DNA of 5,478 bases from Bacteroidales bacterium UBA1199 (GTDB taxonomy: Bacteria > Bacteroidota > Bacteroidia > Bacteroidales > UBA932). Each line of letters begins with the position of its first letter. Within the stretch, counting starts at the first letter, position 1. Both the position numbers and the translations under genes were made by a program. The notes below the pieces were generated by a model. The model saw nothing but the letters and a program-made list of their open reading frames with translations, had not been told where the DNA came from and made no database searches. Location: positions 20,427 to 25,904 of the forward strand of contig DBXZ01000012.1 in the NCBI GenBank assembly GCA_002309795.1, written 5' to 3'. Shown one piece after another: positions 20 to 5,478 of the stretch.

Positions 20-55
20 AAAAAAAACGCCAGCCTTTCGGTTGGCGTTTTTTTT
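20..55 (-). terminator. Intrinsic terminator of the murB-ending operon (bidirectional shape)
   Basis: An 8-base-pair GC-rich stem (28-35 pairs with 40-47, one G-T wobble) encloses a 4-base loop at 36-39. Eight A (20-27) and eight T (48-55) flank it, so either strand gives a hairpin followed by a U run. Read on the minus strand the loop is GAAA, a stabilising GNRA tetraloop closed by C-G, so the hairpin looks best suited to stopping leftward transcription. The murB stop codon (54-56) overlaps the A-tract, so there is essentially no 3' untranslated spacer. The symmetry would also let it stop a rightward transcript entering from outside the window. Confidence 0.93.
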
Positions 56-1112
56 ATCGAATTTGATTGACTTCCATGGAGAGGGTCACGCCGAAGCGGG
101 CAGCTACGTCGGCCACCACGGCGGTGGCCAGGGCCAGGATATCGTTACCCGTGGCGCCGCCCTGGTTGACCAGGACCAGCGGCTGTTTTTCATAGACGCC
201 GGCGGGACCCAGCGAGCGCCCTTTCCAGCCGGACTGGTCTATCAGCCAGGCGGCGGAAAGCTTGACAAACCCCTCACCTGCTTCATAGTGCGGCATCGCG
301 GGATAGCGTTCGGCCAGCGAACGGTACTGCGTCTCCGGCACCACCGGGTTCATGAAGAAGCTGCCGGCATTGCCCAGCACGGCGGGATTGGGAAGCTTTT
401 CGCCCCGCATCGCCACCACTTCGCGACGGATGTCCGCGGCGTCGAAGGCCGGACGCAGCCCGTTGCCGGTACGGCCCGCAAACCGGTCGGAGAGCGCCTT
501 ATATGAAAAATTCGGCGTAAAGGCGGTCTGCAGCCGGTAGGTTACGTAGGTGATGATATATTTCTTGTTTTCCGGCCGCTTGAAGATGCTGTCGCGGTAG
601 GCATAACCGCACTCCTCCACCGTAAAGACGCGCTTCTCGCAGGTCTCCGCGTTGATGGCCTCCACCTTCACGACCATATCTTTGATTTCCGCACCGTAAG
701 CGCCGATATTCTGCACGGCCGATGCCCCCACGTCGCCCGGAATGCCCGAGAGATTCTCCGCACCATACCAGCCGCTGGAGAGCGCCAGCGCCACGAAGGC
801 ATCCCAGTTGTGGCCCGAACCCACGCGGACGCAGACCGTAGCCTCGTCCGACACGGCACGGGAATGCGAGACGGGTCGCGGCCGCACGGTGACCGAATCG
901 ATCGCACTATGCAGCACCGTGCCGTGGAAGTCTCCGCAGAAGAGCAGGTTGGAGCCGCCGCCGATGTTCAGAATCCGCTCGCCGCGGAACATCCGAAGCG
1001 CCTCGACGAGCTCCGATTCGCTGTGATACTCCACGAACCGGTCCGCCCGCACATCCATCCCGAAGGTGTTGTGCGCAAGCAGCGGAAAGCCGGTTTCAAT
1101 ACGCAGGGCCAT
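54..1112 (-). CDS. murB: UDP-N-acetylenolpyruvoylglucosamine reductase (MurB, type I)
   Basis: This cytoplasmic FAD enzyme uses NADPH to reduce UDP-GlcNAc-enolpyruvate to UDP-MurNAc, the second committed step of peptidoglycan synthesis. The 352 residues are close to the E. coli enzyme (about 340). Visible motifs are the FAD-binding GGGSN (51-55), the ENLSGIPGDVGAS...NIGAYG block (119-140), YRDSIFK (172-178, with the substrate-contacting Arg173 and the Tyr typical of type I), GNAGSFFMNP (247-256, with Ser251 as the proton-donating serine) and Glu347 near the C-terminus (SMEVNQIR), matching the catalytic Glu of the family. WLIDQSGWKG (289-298) is also type I-like. The ATG at 1110-1112 gives a family-typical N-terminus reaching the conserved NTFG. 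It lies 11 bases after the murA stop, with no clear Shine-Dalgarno sequence. It is the last gene of the operon, and the terminator overlaps its stop codon. No key residue is missing. Confidence 0.97.
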   Translation of the reverse strand: MALRIETGFPLLAHNTFGMDVRADRFVEYHSESELVEALRMFRGERILNIGGGSNLLFCGDFHGTVLHSAIDSVTVRPRPVSHSRAVSDEATVCVRVGSGHNWDAFVALALSSGWYGAENLSGIPGDVGASAVQNIGAYGAEIKDMVVKVEAINAETCEKRVFTVEECGYAYRDSIFKRPENKKYIITYVTYRLQTAFTPNFSYKALSDRFAGRTGNGLRPAFDAADIRREVVAMRGEKLPNPAVLGNAGSFFMNPVVPETQYRSLAERYPAMPHYEAGEGFVKLSAAWLIDQSGWKGRSLGPAGVYEKQPLVLVNQGGATGNDILALATAVVADVAARFGVTLSMEVNQIR

Positions 1113-2463: not shown

Positions 2464-3852
2464 TTATTTCAGATCCGAGCGGAGTTTGTCGGCATAGCGG
2501 TCAATCTTCCGCATCTGCTGCGGGATGTTGATGCGCTGCGGGCAAGCCTCTACGCAATGGCCGCAGCCGATGCACTGCTCTGCCTGGCGCAGGCGCGGCA
2601 CACTCCGGTCGTAACCCACCAGGAAGGCGCGGCGCGCGCGGCGGTAAGCCTTATCGCCCTTGTCTTCGTTGATGTTGCCCTCGTTGACGCACTTGTTGTA
2701 GTGCGCAAAGATGCCGGGGATATCCAGGCCGTACGGGCACGGCATGCAGTACTGGCAGGCGGTGCAGTTGATGAGCGGATATTTGCGGAACTCGTCGGCC
2801 AGGCCGTAAAGCGTCTGGATATCTTCTTCCGTGAGCGGCTTCAACGGGCTGAACGACTTGAGGTTGTCCTGCAGGTGTTCCATGTAGGTCATACCGCTGA
2901 GCACCGTGAGAATCTGCGGGAAGGTGCCGCAGTAACGGAAGGCCCAGGAGGCAATGGAACGCTCCGGTTCCAGGGCCTGCAGTTTTGCGTTCAAATGGTC
3001 GTTGAGCGAAGCGAGCTGGCCGCCGAGCAGCGGTTCCATGATCACCACGGGAATGTTGCGCCTGGCCAGTTCGGTGTACATATACTCCGCGCTGCAGTCG
3101 GAAGTGCGCTGCGCCTCTTTCCAGTCGGCATAGTTCATCTGGATCTGCACGAAGTCCCAATGGTACTTGTCGTGCAGCGCGAGCACGTAGTCAAAGGTCT
3201 CGCGGTCGCAGTGCACCGAATAGCCCAGGTTGCGGATGCGGCCCGCCTTGCGCTCCTTGAGCAGGTAGTCCAGCACGCCGTTCTTGATGAAGCGGGTTTC
3301 AAAGCGCTGCGGTCCGGTTTCGCCGTCACGCGGCGTGCCGATGTTGTGCAGCAGGTAGTAGTCGATATAATCCACCTGCAGGCGCTTCATCGAGGCGTGG
3401 TACATCTCCAGGGCCGCAGCCTTGGTGAAGGGCGGACGGGCGTTGGAGAGTTTGGTGGCCACATAGTAGGAGCTGCGCGGATGACGCTTGAGGGCAATAC
3501 CGGTCGCGGTCTCCGAACGGCCCCGCTGGTACGCCGGGGCGGTATCGAAATAGTTGACGCCGTGTTCCAGTGCATAATCGACCAGGCGGTTGATGGTTTC
3601 CTGGTCCAGTTCCGGCTCCTTGCCTTCCGCTGCGGGCAGCGTGGGCCAGCGCATGCAGCCGTATCCGAGGAGGGAGACGCGGTCGCCTCGCGGACCTTCG
3701 CGGTAGGTCATTTCTCCTGCTTCCGGTGCCTGCGGAGCGATTGCGGCGCGGGCCGATGCGGGGATGGCGGTAGCGGCCGTGACGACAGTGGCGCCTACAC
3801 CCAGGCGCTGAAGGAATTCACGACGGTTGATGGTATTCTCGTTCTGTTTCAT
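2464..3852 (-). CDS. Tat-exported aldo/keto reductase with C-terminal 4Fe-4S ferredoxin domain
   Basis: A predicted periplasmic or exported oxidoreductase of 462 residues. The N-terminus has a twin-arginine signal: NRREFLQRL (9-17), a hydrophobic stretch to about residue 30, and a likely A-R-A cleavage site near residue 36. Residues about 50-335 form an aldo/keto reductase barrel with the catalytic tetrad in place: Asp103 and Tyr108 in YFDTAPAYQRGRSE, Lys134 in VATKLS and His169 in YYLLHN. The late-barrel cofactor loop reads VLSGMTYMEHLQDN (317-330), without the usual basic residue expected to hold the NADPH 2'-phosphate, so the cofactor is uncertain. The C-terminus carries two cysteine groups, C363/C366/C369/C372-P and C427/C430/C433/C437-P, enough for two [4Fe-4S] clusters. 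The layout matches the COG1453 type of Fe-S aldo/keto reductases. The start is fixed by a perfect Shine-Dalgarno sequence 7 bases upstream. The gene follows a membrane polyferredoxin by 12 bases, suggesting an electron-transfer partner. The substrate is unknown. Confidence 0.9.
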   Translation of the reverse strand: MKQNENTINRREFLQRLGVGATVVTAATAIPASARAAIAPQAPEAGEMTYREGPRGDRVSLLGYGCMRWPTLPAAEGKEPELDQETINRLVDYALEHGVNYFDTAPAYQRGRSETATGIALKRHPRSSYYVATKLSNARPPFTKAAALEMYHASMKRLQVDYIDYYLLHNIGTPRDGETGPQRFETRFIKNGVLDYLLKERKAGRIRNLGYSVHCDRETFDYVLALHDKYHWDFVQIQMNYADWKEAQRTSDCSAEYMYTELARRNIPVVIMEPLLGGQLASLNDHLNAKLQALEPERSIASWAFRYCGTFPQILTVLSGMTYMEHLQDNLKSFSPLKPLTEEDIQTLYGLADEFRKYPLINCTACQYCMPCPYGLDIPGIFAHYNKCVNEGNINEDKGDKAYRRARRAFLVGYDRSVPRLRQAEQCIGCGHCVEACPQRINIPQQMRKIDRYADKLRSDLK

Positions 3853-3859
3853 GGCTGTT

Positions 3860-3867
3860 CCTCCTTA
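3860..3867 (-). promoter_or_regulatory. Full-length Shine-Dalgarno site fused to the upstream stop codon
   Basis: On the minus strand the polyferredoxin stop codon and the next ribosome binding site read TAAGGAGG as one continuous string, complementary over eight bases to the usual 16S rRNA 3' end. Seven bases (3853-3859) separate it from the ATG of the aldo/keto reductase, an ideal spacing. It decides that start and suggests re-initiation by ribosomes that have just terminated. Neither murA nor murB has such a site. The base match is certain; translational coupling is inferred. Confidence 0.85.
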
Positions 3868-5367
3868 GATTTCCGAATGGACTTCGTGACCGACTACATA
3901 GATGGCGCTGAGCGGGCGGGCCGGGCAGTGATATTCGCACGAGCCGCAGCCTATGCAGCGTTCCGAATCGACGGCAGGCACCTTGAGGTTGCTGCCGAAT
4001 CCGGCGGGCACCATGCGGATGGCACCGGCCGGGCAGTGGCGCGCGCAGTTGCCGCACGAATCGCCGTTGGTGGTCACCACGCAGTTTTCGCGGAGCCAGA
4101 CGGCGTGGCCGATGCGGATGGAACTCTTCTGCGCCTTGGTCACCGGGGTGATGGCGCCGGCCGGGCAGACCTCCGAACAAGTGGTGCAGGTCGGGCGGCA
4201 GAATCCTTTGATATACGAGATCTCCGGCTGCATCAGGGTATTCAGGTCCGTGGAAGGCCGCAGGATGTGCGACGGGCACTTGGTCACGCAGAGCTGGCAG
4301 GCCACGCATTTGTCGGAGAAGTTCTTGAGGCTCAGCGAGCCGGCGGGCTTAATGGGGGTTTCGCGATCCGGCATGACCTTCTCTTCCAGGGCGGCCATGG
4401 CCACTTCCGCCTTGCGCTTTTTGGCCTCTACCGTGGTGGCGGCGGCCAGCATGACGCCGGCCGTCAGGAAGCCGCGTCGCGATTTGTCCACCTTCTCTTC
4501 CGCGGGTTTTTCCGCGGGCTGGGCAGCGGCTATTTTGGATTTGCAGCCCCAGCCGACGAATTTGTATTCAATGGCGTGCTGGTTGCAGTTCTCCAGGCAG
4601 TCCATGCAGACCACGCAGCGCGAATAGTCGATTTTGTGTTCCTTGGCGTTGATGCAGCCCGCCTTGCATTTGCGCGAGCAGATCGTGCAGCCGTTGCATT
4701 TATCCGTGTTGATCACCGGCTTGTAGAGCGACCAGTGCGAAATCAGGCCGAGCAGCGTACCCACCGGGCAGACGGTGTTGCACCAGGTACGGCCGCCGCG
4801 CCAGGCCAGGATGAAGATCAGCACGAAGAGGGCTGCCGCCGCGATAAAGGTAGGCAGGCTCTTGATGTAGACTTCGGTCGGATAGAACGCGTAGCTGTTC
4901 CAATGCTCGGCGAGCAGGGCCAGCAGGTTGTTCACGCCGCCGTAGATGGGGCCGAAGAGTTCGGTGGTCACGCGACCGAAGGTGCTGTAGGGCTCGATGA
5001 AGGCGGCAATGGAGGCCAGGCCGAAAGCCATCAGTGCGATAAAGATGAACATCAGACTGTAGCGCAGAGCGTTGTGCGCCTTGCGGTAGTGATAGCGGGC
5101 CTTTTTCTGCTTGCGGGAGAACCAGCCGATGATGTCCTGTGCGATGCCCAGCGGGCAGATGACGGAACAATAGACGCGGCCGAAGATCAGGGTCAGCAGC
5201 ACCAGGGCTACGATTACGCCCACGTTCACGGCCAGGATGGCGGGTACGAGCTGGATCTTGGCCAGCGCCCCGAACCAGGCGTGCAGGGTTCCCGTAAAAT
5301 CGAGAAACAGCAGGGTCAGCAGCGTAAAGATAACAGCTGCCAATATTACGCGGATTTTCTTCAACAT
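3865..5367 (-). CDS. NapH-NapG-like fused membrane polyferredoxin with internal twin-arginine segment
   Basis: A 500-residue inner-membrane electron-transfer protein. The first half resembles NapH: membrane segments at about 5-24, 39-63, 102-123 and 170-189; two CxxxCP motifs (C67/C71 in YCSVICPLG, C196/C200 in WCNTVCPVG); then two ferredoxin motifs (C224/C227/C230/C234 and C251/C254/C257/C261). After a charged Ala/Glu/Lys-rich linker (about 276-295) comes SRRGFL (296-301) and a short hydrophobic stretch ending ATTVEA, which reads like the Tat signal that normally begins NapG/MauM proteins. The second half is NapG-like, with four cysteine groups: C354/357/360/364, C390/394/397/401, C429/438/441/445 (a long first spacing) and C471/474/477/481. 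The cysteines could hold six [4Fe-4S] clusters. By NapH topology the first two should be cytoplasmic; the last four would be periplasmic if the internal segment works as a Tat signal. It is not part of a nitrate reductase operon here: no napA-type gene is adjacent. The ATG at 5365-5367 directly precedes the first membrane segment; upstream ATGs are out of frame. It is the first gene of the operon. Confidence 0.9.
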   Translation of the reverse strand: MLKKIRVILAAVIFTLLTLLFLDFTGTLHAWFGALAKIQLVPAILAVNVGVIVALVLLTLIFGRVYCSVICPLGIAQDIIGWFSRKQKKARYHYRKAHNALRYSLMFIFIALMAFGLASIAAFIEPYSTFGRVTTELFGPIYGGVNNLLALLAEHWNSYAFYPTEVYIKSLPTFIAAAALFVLIFILAWRGGRTWCNTVCPVGTLLGLISHWSLYKPVINTDKCNGCTICSRKCKAGCINAKEHKIDYSRCVVCMDCLENCNQHAIEYKFVGWGCKSKIAAAQPAEKPAEEKVDKSRRGFLTAGVMLAAATTVEAKKRKAEVAMAALEEKVMPDRETPIKPAGSLSLKNFSDKCVACQLCVTKCPSHILRPSTDLNTLMQPEISYIKGFCRPTCTTCSEVCPAGAITPVTKAQKSSIRIGHAVWLRENCVVTTNGDSCGNCARHCPAGAIRMVPAGFGSNLKVPAVDSERCIGCGSCEYHCPARPLSAIYVVGHEVHSEI

Positions 5368-5397
5368 AGGATTTCCAGTATCATGAAGACATTTCTA

Positions 5398-5405
5398 CAA
5401 AGATA
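5398..5405 (-). promoter_or_regulatory. Candidate Bacteroidota promoter (-7 element) for the four-gene operon
   Basis: Read leftward this is TATCTTTG, an exact match to the Bacteroidota -7 consensus TAnnTTTG. Transcription would start near 5391, leaving a leader of about 24 bases before the polyferredoxin ATG. No clear TTTG -33 element lies upstream: the corresponding place (about 5425-5430) reads ATGG in an AT-rich stretch. It may therefore be a weaker or activator-dependent promoter. Confidence 0.6.
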
Positions 5406-5410
5406 ATTTA

Positions 5411-5455: not shown

Positions 5456-5478
5456 GCCTTGGTGGTGGAATGGTAGAC
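5456..5478 (+). tRNA. tRNA-Leu, 5' part only (cut by the window edge)
   Basis: The last 23 bases fit the start of a leucine tRNA: a 7-base acceptor strand (GCCTTGG), T at position 8, and the D-arm sequence GGTGGAATGGTAGAC that is characteristic of bacterial tRNA-Leu. The anticodon, variable arm and 3' end lie outside the window, so the isoacceptor cannot be named. A matching promoter lies directly upstream. Confidence 0.82.

What the first reader, a model, noticed from the sequence alone, without database searches (positions are those of the whole stretch)
3865..5367. NapH and NapG fused into one chain with a Tat-like signal in the middle
NapH (membrane, cytoplasmic clusters) and NapG (Tat-exported, four clusters) are normally separate subunits. 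Here one 500-residue protein contains both, and the SRRGFL motif that should begin NapG sits at residues 296-301 (4465-4482). If it works, the first half would be inserted by Sec and the second, already carrying its clusters, exported folded by Tat. Dual Sec/Tat insertion is known for some actinobacterial Rieske proteins. The result would be a single-chain wire of up to six cubane clusters across the membrane.
Basis: partly seen in the sequence, partly recalled or inferred. Interest (0 to 1): 0.72.

Follow-up and report, generated by a model that had tools for sequence, protein, structure and literature searches.

The report
Membrane electron wire, perhaps cut in two
A bacterium related to rumen Bacteroidales makes two parts of an iron-sulfur electron carrier as one protein with an export signal in its middle; relatives suggest that this signal is often cut after export, and the gene sits beside one for an exported partner enzyme that it probably exchanges electrons with.

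Summary
In detail: window 3865-5367, minus strand, encodes a 500-residue NapH-like/NapG-like fusion with SRRGFL at residues 296-301. The kind is known: Tooke et al. 2017 (PMC5449189) tested such a fusion and showed Tat dependence in E. coli. Here the pair is RR in 57 and KR in 3 of 60 full-length sequences, 28 cysteines are invariant, and TatC is in 50 of 50 relatives' genomes searched. Of 295 Bacteroidales genomes, 136 of 137 with the gene have TatC, against 112 of 158 without.

Two points go further. First, in Bacteroidales the internal Tat segment looks like a cleavable signal peptide: short, then small-x-Ala, often followed by Gln, as the Bacteroidetes Q-rule predicts (16 of 39 non-redundant sequences; shuffles mean 3.3, maximum 9). 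The window's own copy reads VEA|K, without the Gln. 'Single chain' may describe only the precursor. Second, the gene is half of a two-gene module: 141 of 150 listed copies lie beside an aldo/keto reductase-ferredoxin (56, as here) or a DUF362 protein (85), families that carry Tat signals where examined. Cleavage, electron direction and substrate are inferred.

The parts
3865..5367 (-). Polyferredoxin ORF, 500 aa: NapH-like half, internal Tat signal, NapG-like half
4795..5364 (-). Four-helix membrane part, residues 2-191
   Evidence: AlphaFold2 helices 2-22, 49-62, 99-114, 171-191; K+R counts 3, 1, 7, 2, 2 of successive regions favour N-in
5152..5169 (-). CX3CP motif 1, residues 67-72
   Evidence: C67, C71 invariant in 60 of 60
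4765..4782 (-). CX3CP motif 2, residues 196-201
   Evidence: C196, C200 invariant in 60 of 60
4666..4698 (-). NapH-like CX2CX2CX3C cluster motif, residues 224-234
4585..4617 (-). NapH-like CX2CX2CX3C cluster motif, residues 251-261
4465..4482 (-). SRRGFL twin-arginine motif, residues 296-301
   Evidence: RR 57 and KR 3 of 60
4429..4473 (-). Short hydrophobic stretch of the internal Tat signal, residues 299-313
   Evidence: least hydrophobic of five segments in 60 of 60 sequences (scale values recalled)
4423..4431 (-). Possible signal peptidase I site V313-E-A315, cut before K316
   Evidence: small-x-Ala by inspection; Gln-type sites in relatives; not shown for this protein
4411..4422 (-). Positive cluster KKRK after the Tat segment, residues 316-319
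3868..4347 (-). NapG-like half, residues 341-500, with four cluster motifs
   Evidence: TIGR00397, NF007012; 16 cysteines invariant in 60 of 60
2464..3852 (-). Partner: aldo/keto reductase with C-terminal 4Fe-4S domain, 462 aa, starting 12 bases after the polyferredoxin ORF
   Evidence: PF00248 E 9.4e-36 and Fer4_9; AKR fold matches; D103, Y108, K134, H169 invariant in 46 sequences (catalytic roles recalled); gap
3811..3828 (-). Twin-arginine motif NRREFL of the partner, residues 9-14
   Evidence: RR in 51 of 52 long relatives
2737..2766 (-). Partner cluster motif 1, residues 363-372
   Evidence: C363, C366, C369, C372 at least 90% conserved in 46
2542..2574 (-). Partner cluster motif 2, residues 427-437
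   Evidence: C427, C430 invariant, C433, C437 at least 90% conserved in 46

Best explanation
The window holds a two-gene anaerobic electron-transfer module. The polyferredoxin's four N-terminal helices are inserted by Sec. Its two NapH-like clusters stay in the cytoplasm, where it probably takes electrons from menaquinol as NapGH does. The NapG-like half folds around four clusters in the cytoplasm and is exported by Tat through the internal RR signal. In many Bacteroidales signal peptidase I probably then cuts behind that signal, leaving a membrane NapH-like subunit and a separate periplasmic NapG-like subunit made from one gene in equal amounts. The NapG-like part exchanges electrons, most likely as donor, with the Tat-exported aldo/keto reductase-ferredoxin encoded next to it. 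Shown here by computation: domains, RR conservation, co-occurrence with TatC, gene pairing, site statistics. Shown elsewhere by experiment: Tat dependence of one relative. Inferred: cleavage, electron donor and direction, substrate.
For: Domains and cysteines. RR 57 and KR 3 of 60; 181 RR, 13 KR, 1 QR of 195. TatC in 50 of 50 relatives' genomes; 136 of 137 gene-positive against 112 of 158 gene-negative Bacteroidales genomes. Published Tat dependence of a NapH-NapG fusion. Cleavage: 13-19 residues free of D, E, K, R, H, N and Q after the RR (commonest 14), and lowest hydrophobicity of the five segments in 60 of 60; small-x-Ala|Gln at RR+10 to +28 in 29 of 55, 7 of 20 and 79 of 120 sequences, above every one of 1000 shuffles in each set, and in 16 of 39 non-redundant sequences (shuffle maximum 9 of 2000). 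Module: 141 of 150 listed polyferredoxin places lie within 2.5 kb, same strand, of a partner gene (56 aldo/keto reductase, 85 DUF362). Partner RR signals in 51 of 52 long aldo/keto reductases and 19 of 19 aligned DUF362 proteins.
Against: The window's own site is VEA|K, with no Gln at +1. 23 of 39 non-redundant sequences lack small-x-Ala|Gln. My first two site callers gave Gln at +1 in only 8 of 55 loci sequences, not above the shuffle maximum. The wider motif small-x-Ala followed by any polar residue does not exceed shuffles in the DUF362-linked set (13 of 20; shuffle maximum 14). The published relative is modelled with TMD5 kept as a 22-residue segment (aa 338-359). One gene-positive genome (G138) lacks TatC. 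Kinship was not corrected in the Fisher test. The partner profiles were built from genes already next to the polyferredoxin, so counts taken from the partner side are biased towards pairing. No data on direction or substrate.
Confidence: 0.55

Rival explanations
1. The chain is not cut: the internal Tat segment stays as a fifth, short membrane anchor and the protein is a true single-chain six-cluster wire, as the first reader and the published model hold. Everything else is as in the best explanation.
For: Published model for the MLMS-1 relative: TMD5 with positive charges behind it; the window's copy has KKRK in that place and no Gln at +1. 23 of 39 non-redundant sequences lack the Gln-type site.
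Against: Only 13-19 residues without a charged or strongly polar side chain; AlphaFold2 gives residues 281-325 pLDDT below 50 and no helix in 301-312; enrichment of small-x-Ala|Gln exactly there, against about 1-2% of such sites followed by Gln elsewhere in the same proteins.
Confidence: 0.35
2. Electrons run the other way: the exported aldo/keto reductase oxidises a periplasmic alcohol or sugar and the polyferredoxin passes the electrons to the quinone pool or to a cytoplasmic acceptor. This concerns direction only and can hold with or without cleavage.
For: Aldo/keto reductases can work in both directions (recalled); among the best fold and sequence matches are L-galactose dehydrogenases.
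Against: NapGH, the closest characterised pair, is described as a quinol dehydrogenase (Tooke 2017). Nothing here measures direction.
Confidence: 0.3
3. The C-terminal half stays in the cytoplasm and the RR motif is without function.
For: No topology experiment exists for this protein.
Against: RR kept in an otherwise variable linker, co-occurrence with TatC, RR signals on the partners, published Tat dependence of a relative.
Confidence: 0.05

Closest known systems
Dual Sec-Tat polytopic polyferredoxin, delta proteobacterium MLMS-1 Q1NSB0 (Tooke et al. 2017, PMC5449189; abstract, passages and part 5 of 12 of the main text seen)
   Same: NapH-like four-helix half, RR directly before a weakly hydrophobic fifth segment, positive charges behind it, NapG-like half.
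   Different: In the window's family the fifth segment is shorter and, in many relatives, ends in a Gln-type signal peptidase site; the published TMD5 spans aa 338-359. The passages seen name chloroflexi, nitrospirae and euryarchaeota for this protein; 'Bacteroid' occurs once in that paper, for another protein.
NapG/NapH quinol dehydrogenase of periplasmic nitrate reductase
   Same: Same two domains and cluster motifs.
   Different: One gene instead of two; scores far below the curated cut-offs; neighbour is an aldo/keto reductase; no nitrate reductase gene in the 5478 bases (ORFs, families).
Dual-targeted actinobacterial Rieske proteins
   Same: Internal Tat signal in a polytopic protein.
   Different: Other cofactor and fold; same targeting principle only.
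Bacteroidetes Q-rule substrates of signal peptidase I (Bochtler et al. 2018, PMC5837995; abstract and passages seen)
   Same: Small-x-Ala|Gln after the hydrophobic stretch in many relatives.
   Different: The substrates described there are signal peptides of the Sec pathway; here the signal is internal and of Tat type. 'tat' and 'twin' do not occur in that paper's main text.

Membership tests
Dual Sec-Tat polyferredoxin (Tooke 2017) | NapH-like four-helix first half with two [4Fe-4S] motifs | tested here: met
Dual Sec-Tat polyferredoxin (Tooke 2017) | Conserved twin arginine directly before the fifth hydrophobic segment | tested here: met
   RR 57, KR 3 of 60; 181 RR, 13 KR, 1 QR of 195
Dual Sec-Tat polyferredoxin (Tooke 2017) | Fifth segment of low hydrophobicity | tested here: met
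   least hydrophobic of five in 60 of 60, simple sum with recalled scale values
Dual Sec-Tat polyferredoxin (Tooke 2017) | Positive charges just behind the fifth segment | tested here: met
   four K/R in 12 residues in the window's protein; 0 to 4 over 60 sequences
Dual Sec-Tat polyferredoxin (Tooke 2017) | NapG-like C-terminal half with four clusters | tested here: met
   16 invariant cysteines
Dual Sec-Tat polyferredoxin (Tooke 2017) | Fifth segment kept as membrane anchor | tested here: inconclusive
   short segment and Gln-type sites in relatives argue against it; the window's own site is weak
Dual Sec-Tat polyferredoxin (Tooke 2017) | Tat-dependent export shown by reporter | not testable with these tools
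   needs an experiment; done for MLMS-1
NapH (TIGR02163) | Score over the curated cut-off | tested here: not met
   77.7 against 213.05 bits
NapG/MauM (TIGR00397) | Score over the curated cut-off | tested here: not met
   62.7 against 178.85 bits
NapGH complex | Genetic link to periplasmic nitrate reductase napA in the genome | not tested
   none in the window's ORFs; genomes not searched for napA
Signal peptidase I substrate, Bacteroidetes Q-rule | Small residues at -3 and -1 | tested here: met
   V313, A315 in the window's protein
Signal peptidase I substrate, Bacteroidetes Q-rule | Gln at +1 | tested here: not met
   K316 in the window's protein; Gln in 16 of 39 non-redundant relatives
Aldo/keto reductase superfamily (partner) | Domain, fold and D-Y-K-H residues | tested here: met
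   PF00248 E 9.4e-36; best fold matches are AKRs; four residues invariant in 46 (roles recalled)

The most novel reading that the evidence does not exclude
A natural transmembrane polyprotein: one gene makes two electron-transfer subunits for opposite sides of the membrane. Sec inserts the first half, Tat exports the second already holding its clusters, and signal peptidase I cuts at the internal Tat signal, leaving a (pyro)glutamate N-terminus in many Bacteroidales. The free periplasmic half then serves as adaptor for Tat-exported partners of two unrelated kinds: an aldo/keto reductase, perhaps exported with a bound NAD(P)H that the wire re-reduces, or a DUF362 protein, which would give DUF362 an electron-transfer role.
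Probability: 0.4. Interest if true: 0.75.

Novelty: new variant of a known kind. Interest (0 to 1): 0.52.

Why it matters
It turns a topology puzzle into a testable system. The gene is common in Bacteroidales (137 of 295 genomes at E <= 1e-70) and its pairing predicts exported redox chemistry that I found described in none of the papers searched. If the internal signal is cut, dual Sec/Tat insertion becomes a way to make two matched subunits from one gene, and the Gln after the site gives a simple proteomic test. The pairing with DUF362 offers a functional lead for a domain of unknown function.

Tried and rejected
Site calling. My first two scripts for signal peptidase sites broke ties towards small-x-Ala inside the Ala-rich stretch. 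Gln at +1: 8 of 55 loci sequences (fraction 0.145; shuffle maximum 0.164), 7 of 19 DUF362-linked, 51 of 120 database homologues, 0 of 5 Negativicutes, 8 of 55 (0.145; shuffle maximum 0.145), 7 of 13, 54 of 119, 0 of 5. The control on N-terminal signals of neighbouring genes gave 7 of 35 sites from 37 crude candidates, far below the published mean of 71%, so these callers are not reliable. I then counted the motif directly against shuffles, a choice made after seeing those results, and repeated it on 39 sequences under 60% identity. In one search the segment of L005 was cut wrongly and counted as a miss; one search reads it correctly. The loci set and the database set overlap in content and are not independent. 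A wider motif (small-x-Ala then any polar residue) exceeds shuffles in the 55 loci (51; maximum 45) and 120 homologues (118; maximum 96) but not in the DUF362-linked set (13 of 20; maximum 14) or the Negativicutes (2 of 5; maximum 5).

Natural split genes: L041 has an in-frame stop in the NapH-like half, so it is a broken or mis-sequenced copy, not a split gene; described only.

Glutaminyl cyclase: PF04389 matched 5 of 5 relatives and 14 of 14 controls, so it says nothing. Signal peptidase PF10502 matched 4 of 5; the closest relative's genome, G001, had no match.

Fold search of the polyferredoxin gave no match at E <= 0.001.

Literature: searches returned no paper. The listings (titles and starts of abstracts) showed no report of the pairing or of cleavage at an internal Tat signal; searches list only 10 of 34, 12 of 27 and 15 of 120 papers. 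One search is no clean negative: 'NapH' matched naphthalene, and none of the 20 listed of 319 papers held DUF362 or polyferredoxin. Only open-licence PubMed Central papers were searched.

Rows dropped: L041, L051 and L061 of 62 loci before the alignment of 60 (59 loci plus the query); partners under 430 aa; L015, L023, L026, L028, L030, L033, L035, L043, L046, L047, L051 and L061, because of a 50-handle limit; L009, L029, L034, L035, L047 and L057 from the 51 partner sequences before alignment A2. L048 is labelled Planctomycetia but was counted with the Bacteroidota set. The genome searches asked for 90% completeness, but the answers showed no completeness values.

Full report
1. What is there. 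On the minus strand, 5367 to 3865, an ORF of 500 codons encodes a NapH-like membrane half and a NapG-like half. SRRGFL lies at residues 296-301, window 4465-4482. Two CX2CX2CX3C and two CX3CP motifs lie in the first half, and cysteines for four clusters in the second. Of 30 cysteines, 28 are invariant in 60 of 60 full-length sequences; C238 is kept in 57 and C275 is not conserved. K+R counts of the successive regions (3, 1, 7, 2, 2 in the query; family means 2.7, 1.1, 7.4, 2.6, 3.2) favour an N-in first half; the last two differ little. AlphaFold2 gives mean pLDDT 85.7 and pTM 0.80, but residues 281-325, which hold the RR segment, are below 50.

2. Relatives. One scan of genome contigs returned 62 loci, mostly labelled Bacteroidales or its families, five of Negativicutes (L052-L056; class recalled) and one labelled Planctomycetia. 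The fusion is therefore common. The pair is RR in 57 of 60 full-length sequences and KR in L017, L022 and L030, and RR 181, KR 13, QR 1 in the larger set of 195.

3. Tat. The window's own genome is not held. TatC is found in 50 of 50 genomes that hold a relative (50 of the 62 loci were given), among them those of the two closest relatives (86% and 84% identity). TatA/B/E was found in 5 of 5 tested. Among 295 genomes of one order (that of an Alistipes relative) the gene (E <= 1e-70) is in 137 and TatC over its cut-off in 248; 136 of 137 gene-positive genomes have TatC against 112 of 158 gene-negative ones (Fisher p 3.6e-13, kinship not corrected). The exception is G138.

4. Already known. Tooke et al. 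2017 (PMC5449189; abstract, passages and part 5 of 12 of the main text seen) describe this design, a NapH-NapG fusion with RR before TMD5. They report that reporters fused to the MLMS-1 protein need Tat and the RR pair for export, while membrane insertion itself does not.

5. Anchor or cleavable signal. Counted from the second residue after RR, the stretch free of D, E, K, R, H, N and Q is 13-19 long (commonest 14), and the segment is the least hydrophobic of the five in 60 of 60 sequences (scale values recalled). In many relatives it ends small-x-Ala followed by Gln. The Q-rule paper (PMC5837995; abstract and passages seen) reports that 332 of 334 Bacteroidetes species have a predicted Q-value above 48% (mean 71%), the share of signal peptidase I substrates with Gln behind the cut. 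Here small-x-Ala|Gln occurs at RR+10 to +28 in 29 of 55 loci sequences (shuffle mean 6.7, maximum 14 of 1000 shuffles), 7 of 20 DUF362-linked sequences (1.3, maximum 5) and 79 of 120 database homologues (11.9, maximum 22). Elsewhere in the same proteins small-x-Ala is followed by Gln in 32 of 1482, 1 of 282 and 34 of 2928 cases. The five Negativicutes, outside the Q-rule phylum, have 0 of 5. In 39 sequences under 60% identity the count is 16 (shuffle mean 3.3, maximum 9 of 2000 shuffles). Earlier site callers gave weaker figures (see Tried and rejected). I read this as good evidence that the internal signal is cut in part of the Bacteroidales family. For the window's own protein the site would be VEA|K, which is weaker, and 23 of the 39 lack the Gln-type site.

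6. The partner. Twelve bases behind the polyferredoxin ORF starts a 462-residue aldo/keto reductase with a C-terminal 4Fe-4S domain and its own RR signal. Of the 62 loci, 57 hold a relative of it; in nine of these it lies 1-4.2 kb downstream, in the others within about 600 bases. Of the five without, L015, L043 and L051 stop at or near a contig end, L061 holds only a fragment of the polyferredoxin, and L032 has 6 kb of room but no match. RR is in 51 of 52 long partners (the other, L056, was given a late start), and a lipobox-like Cys in 44 of 52; the window's copy lacks it. In the 295 genomes 150 polyferredoxin places were listed (the list was cut). On the same strand and within 2.5 kb, 56 lie next to the aldo/keto reductase (54 downstream, 2 upstream; median gap 36.5 bases), 85 next to a DUF362 protein (all upstream; median gap 24), none to both and 9 to neither. 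From the partner side, 56 of 61 reductase and 85 of 88 DUF362 places adjoin a polyferredoxin, but those profiles were built from adjoining genes at strict cut-offs, so these two figures are biased upwards. Nineteen of 20 fetched group-2 loci have an RR-signal protein of about 310 aa directly upstream; 5 of 5 scanned are DUF362. In the twentieth (L079, G236) the genome search finds DUF362 upstream with its first 37 profile positions unmatched. RR signals were checked in the loci sets, not in each of the 141 pairs.

7. Mechanism. Quinol to NapH-like clusters to NapG-like clusters to exported partner is the simplest reading, by analogy with NapGH. Direction, substrate and the partner's use of NAD(P)H are open. 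Export of the reductase with its nucleotide already bound would solve the cofactor problem; Zymomonas glucose-fructose oxidoreductase is a precedent (recalled, not searched).

8. Verdict. A real and common fusion of an already described kind, with two features not found in the papers searched: signal-peptidase-like marks at the internal Tat signal, and regular pairing with one of two kinds of Tat-signalled partner.

Noticed in passing
window 5456-5478, + strand: Looks like the 5' end of a tRNA-Leu gene cut off by the window end; ARAGORN finds none in the window, but 3 of 4 relatives tested (L062, L003, L004; not L002) have tRNA-Leu(taa) on the opposite strand upstream of the polyferredoxin.
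   Followed up: partly
window 54-1112 and 1124-2431, - strand: murB and murA follow the module on the same strand, over their NCBIfam cut-offs.
   Followed up: partly
window 2557-5406, + strand: A 949-codon open frame runs antisense to both module genes; probably a by-product of GC-rich codon use, not examined further.
   Followed up: no
L005, L019, L020, L025, L026, L033, L034, L035, L047: In nine loci the aldo/keto reductase lies 1-4.2 kb downstream of the polyferredoxin instead of next to it; what lies between was not identified (one search failed on a wrong frame).
   Followed up: no
L063-L082, gene upstream of the polyferredoxin: Twin-arginine DUF362 proteins pair with a second group of polyferredoxins: 85 of 150 listed places in 295 genomes.
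   Followed up: yes
partner N-terminus, window 3730-3852, and relatives: 44 of 52 partner reductases have a lipobox-like Cys after the Tat signal, so many may be Tat-exported lipoproteins; the window's copy and its close relative L062 lack it.
   Followed up: partly
L041:5951-7500: This relative has an in-frame stop in the NapH-like half; broken copy or sequencing error.
   Followed up: partly
genome G138: The only polyferredoxin-positive genome of 137 without a TatC match; incomplete assembly or a real exception.
   Followed up: no
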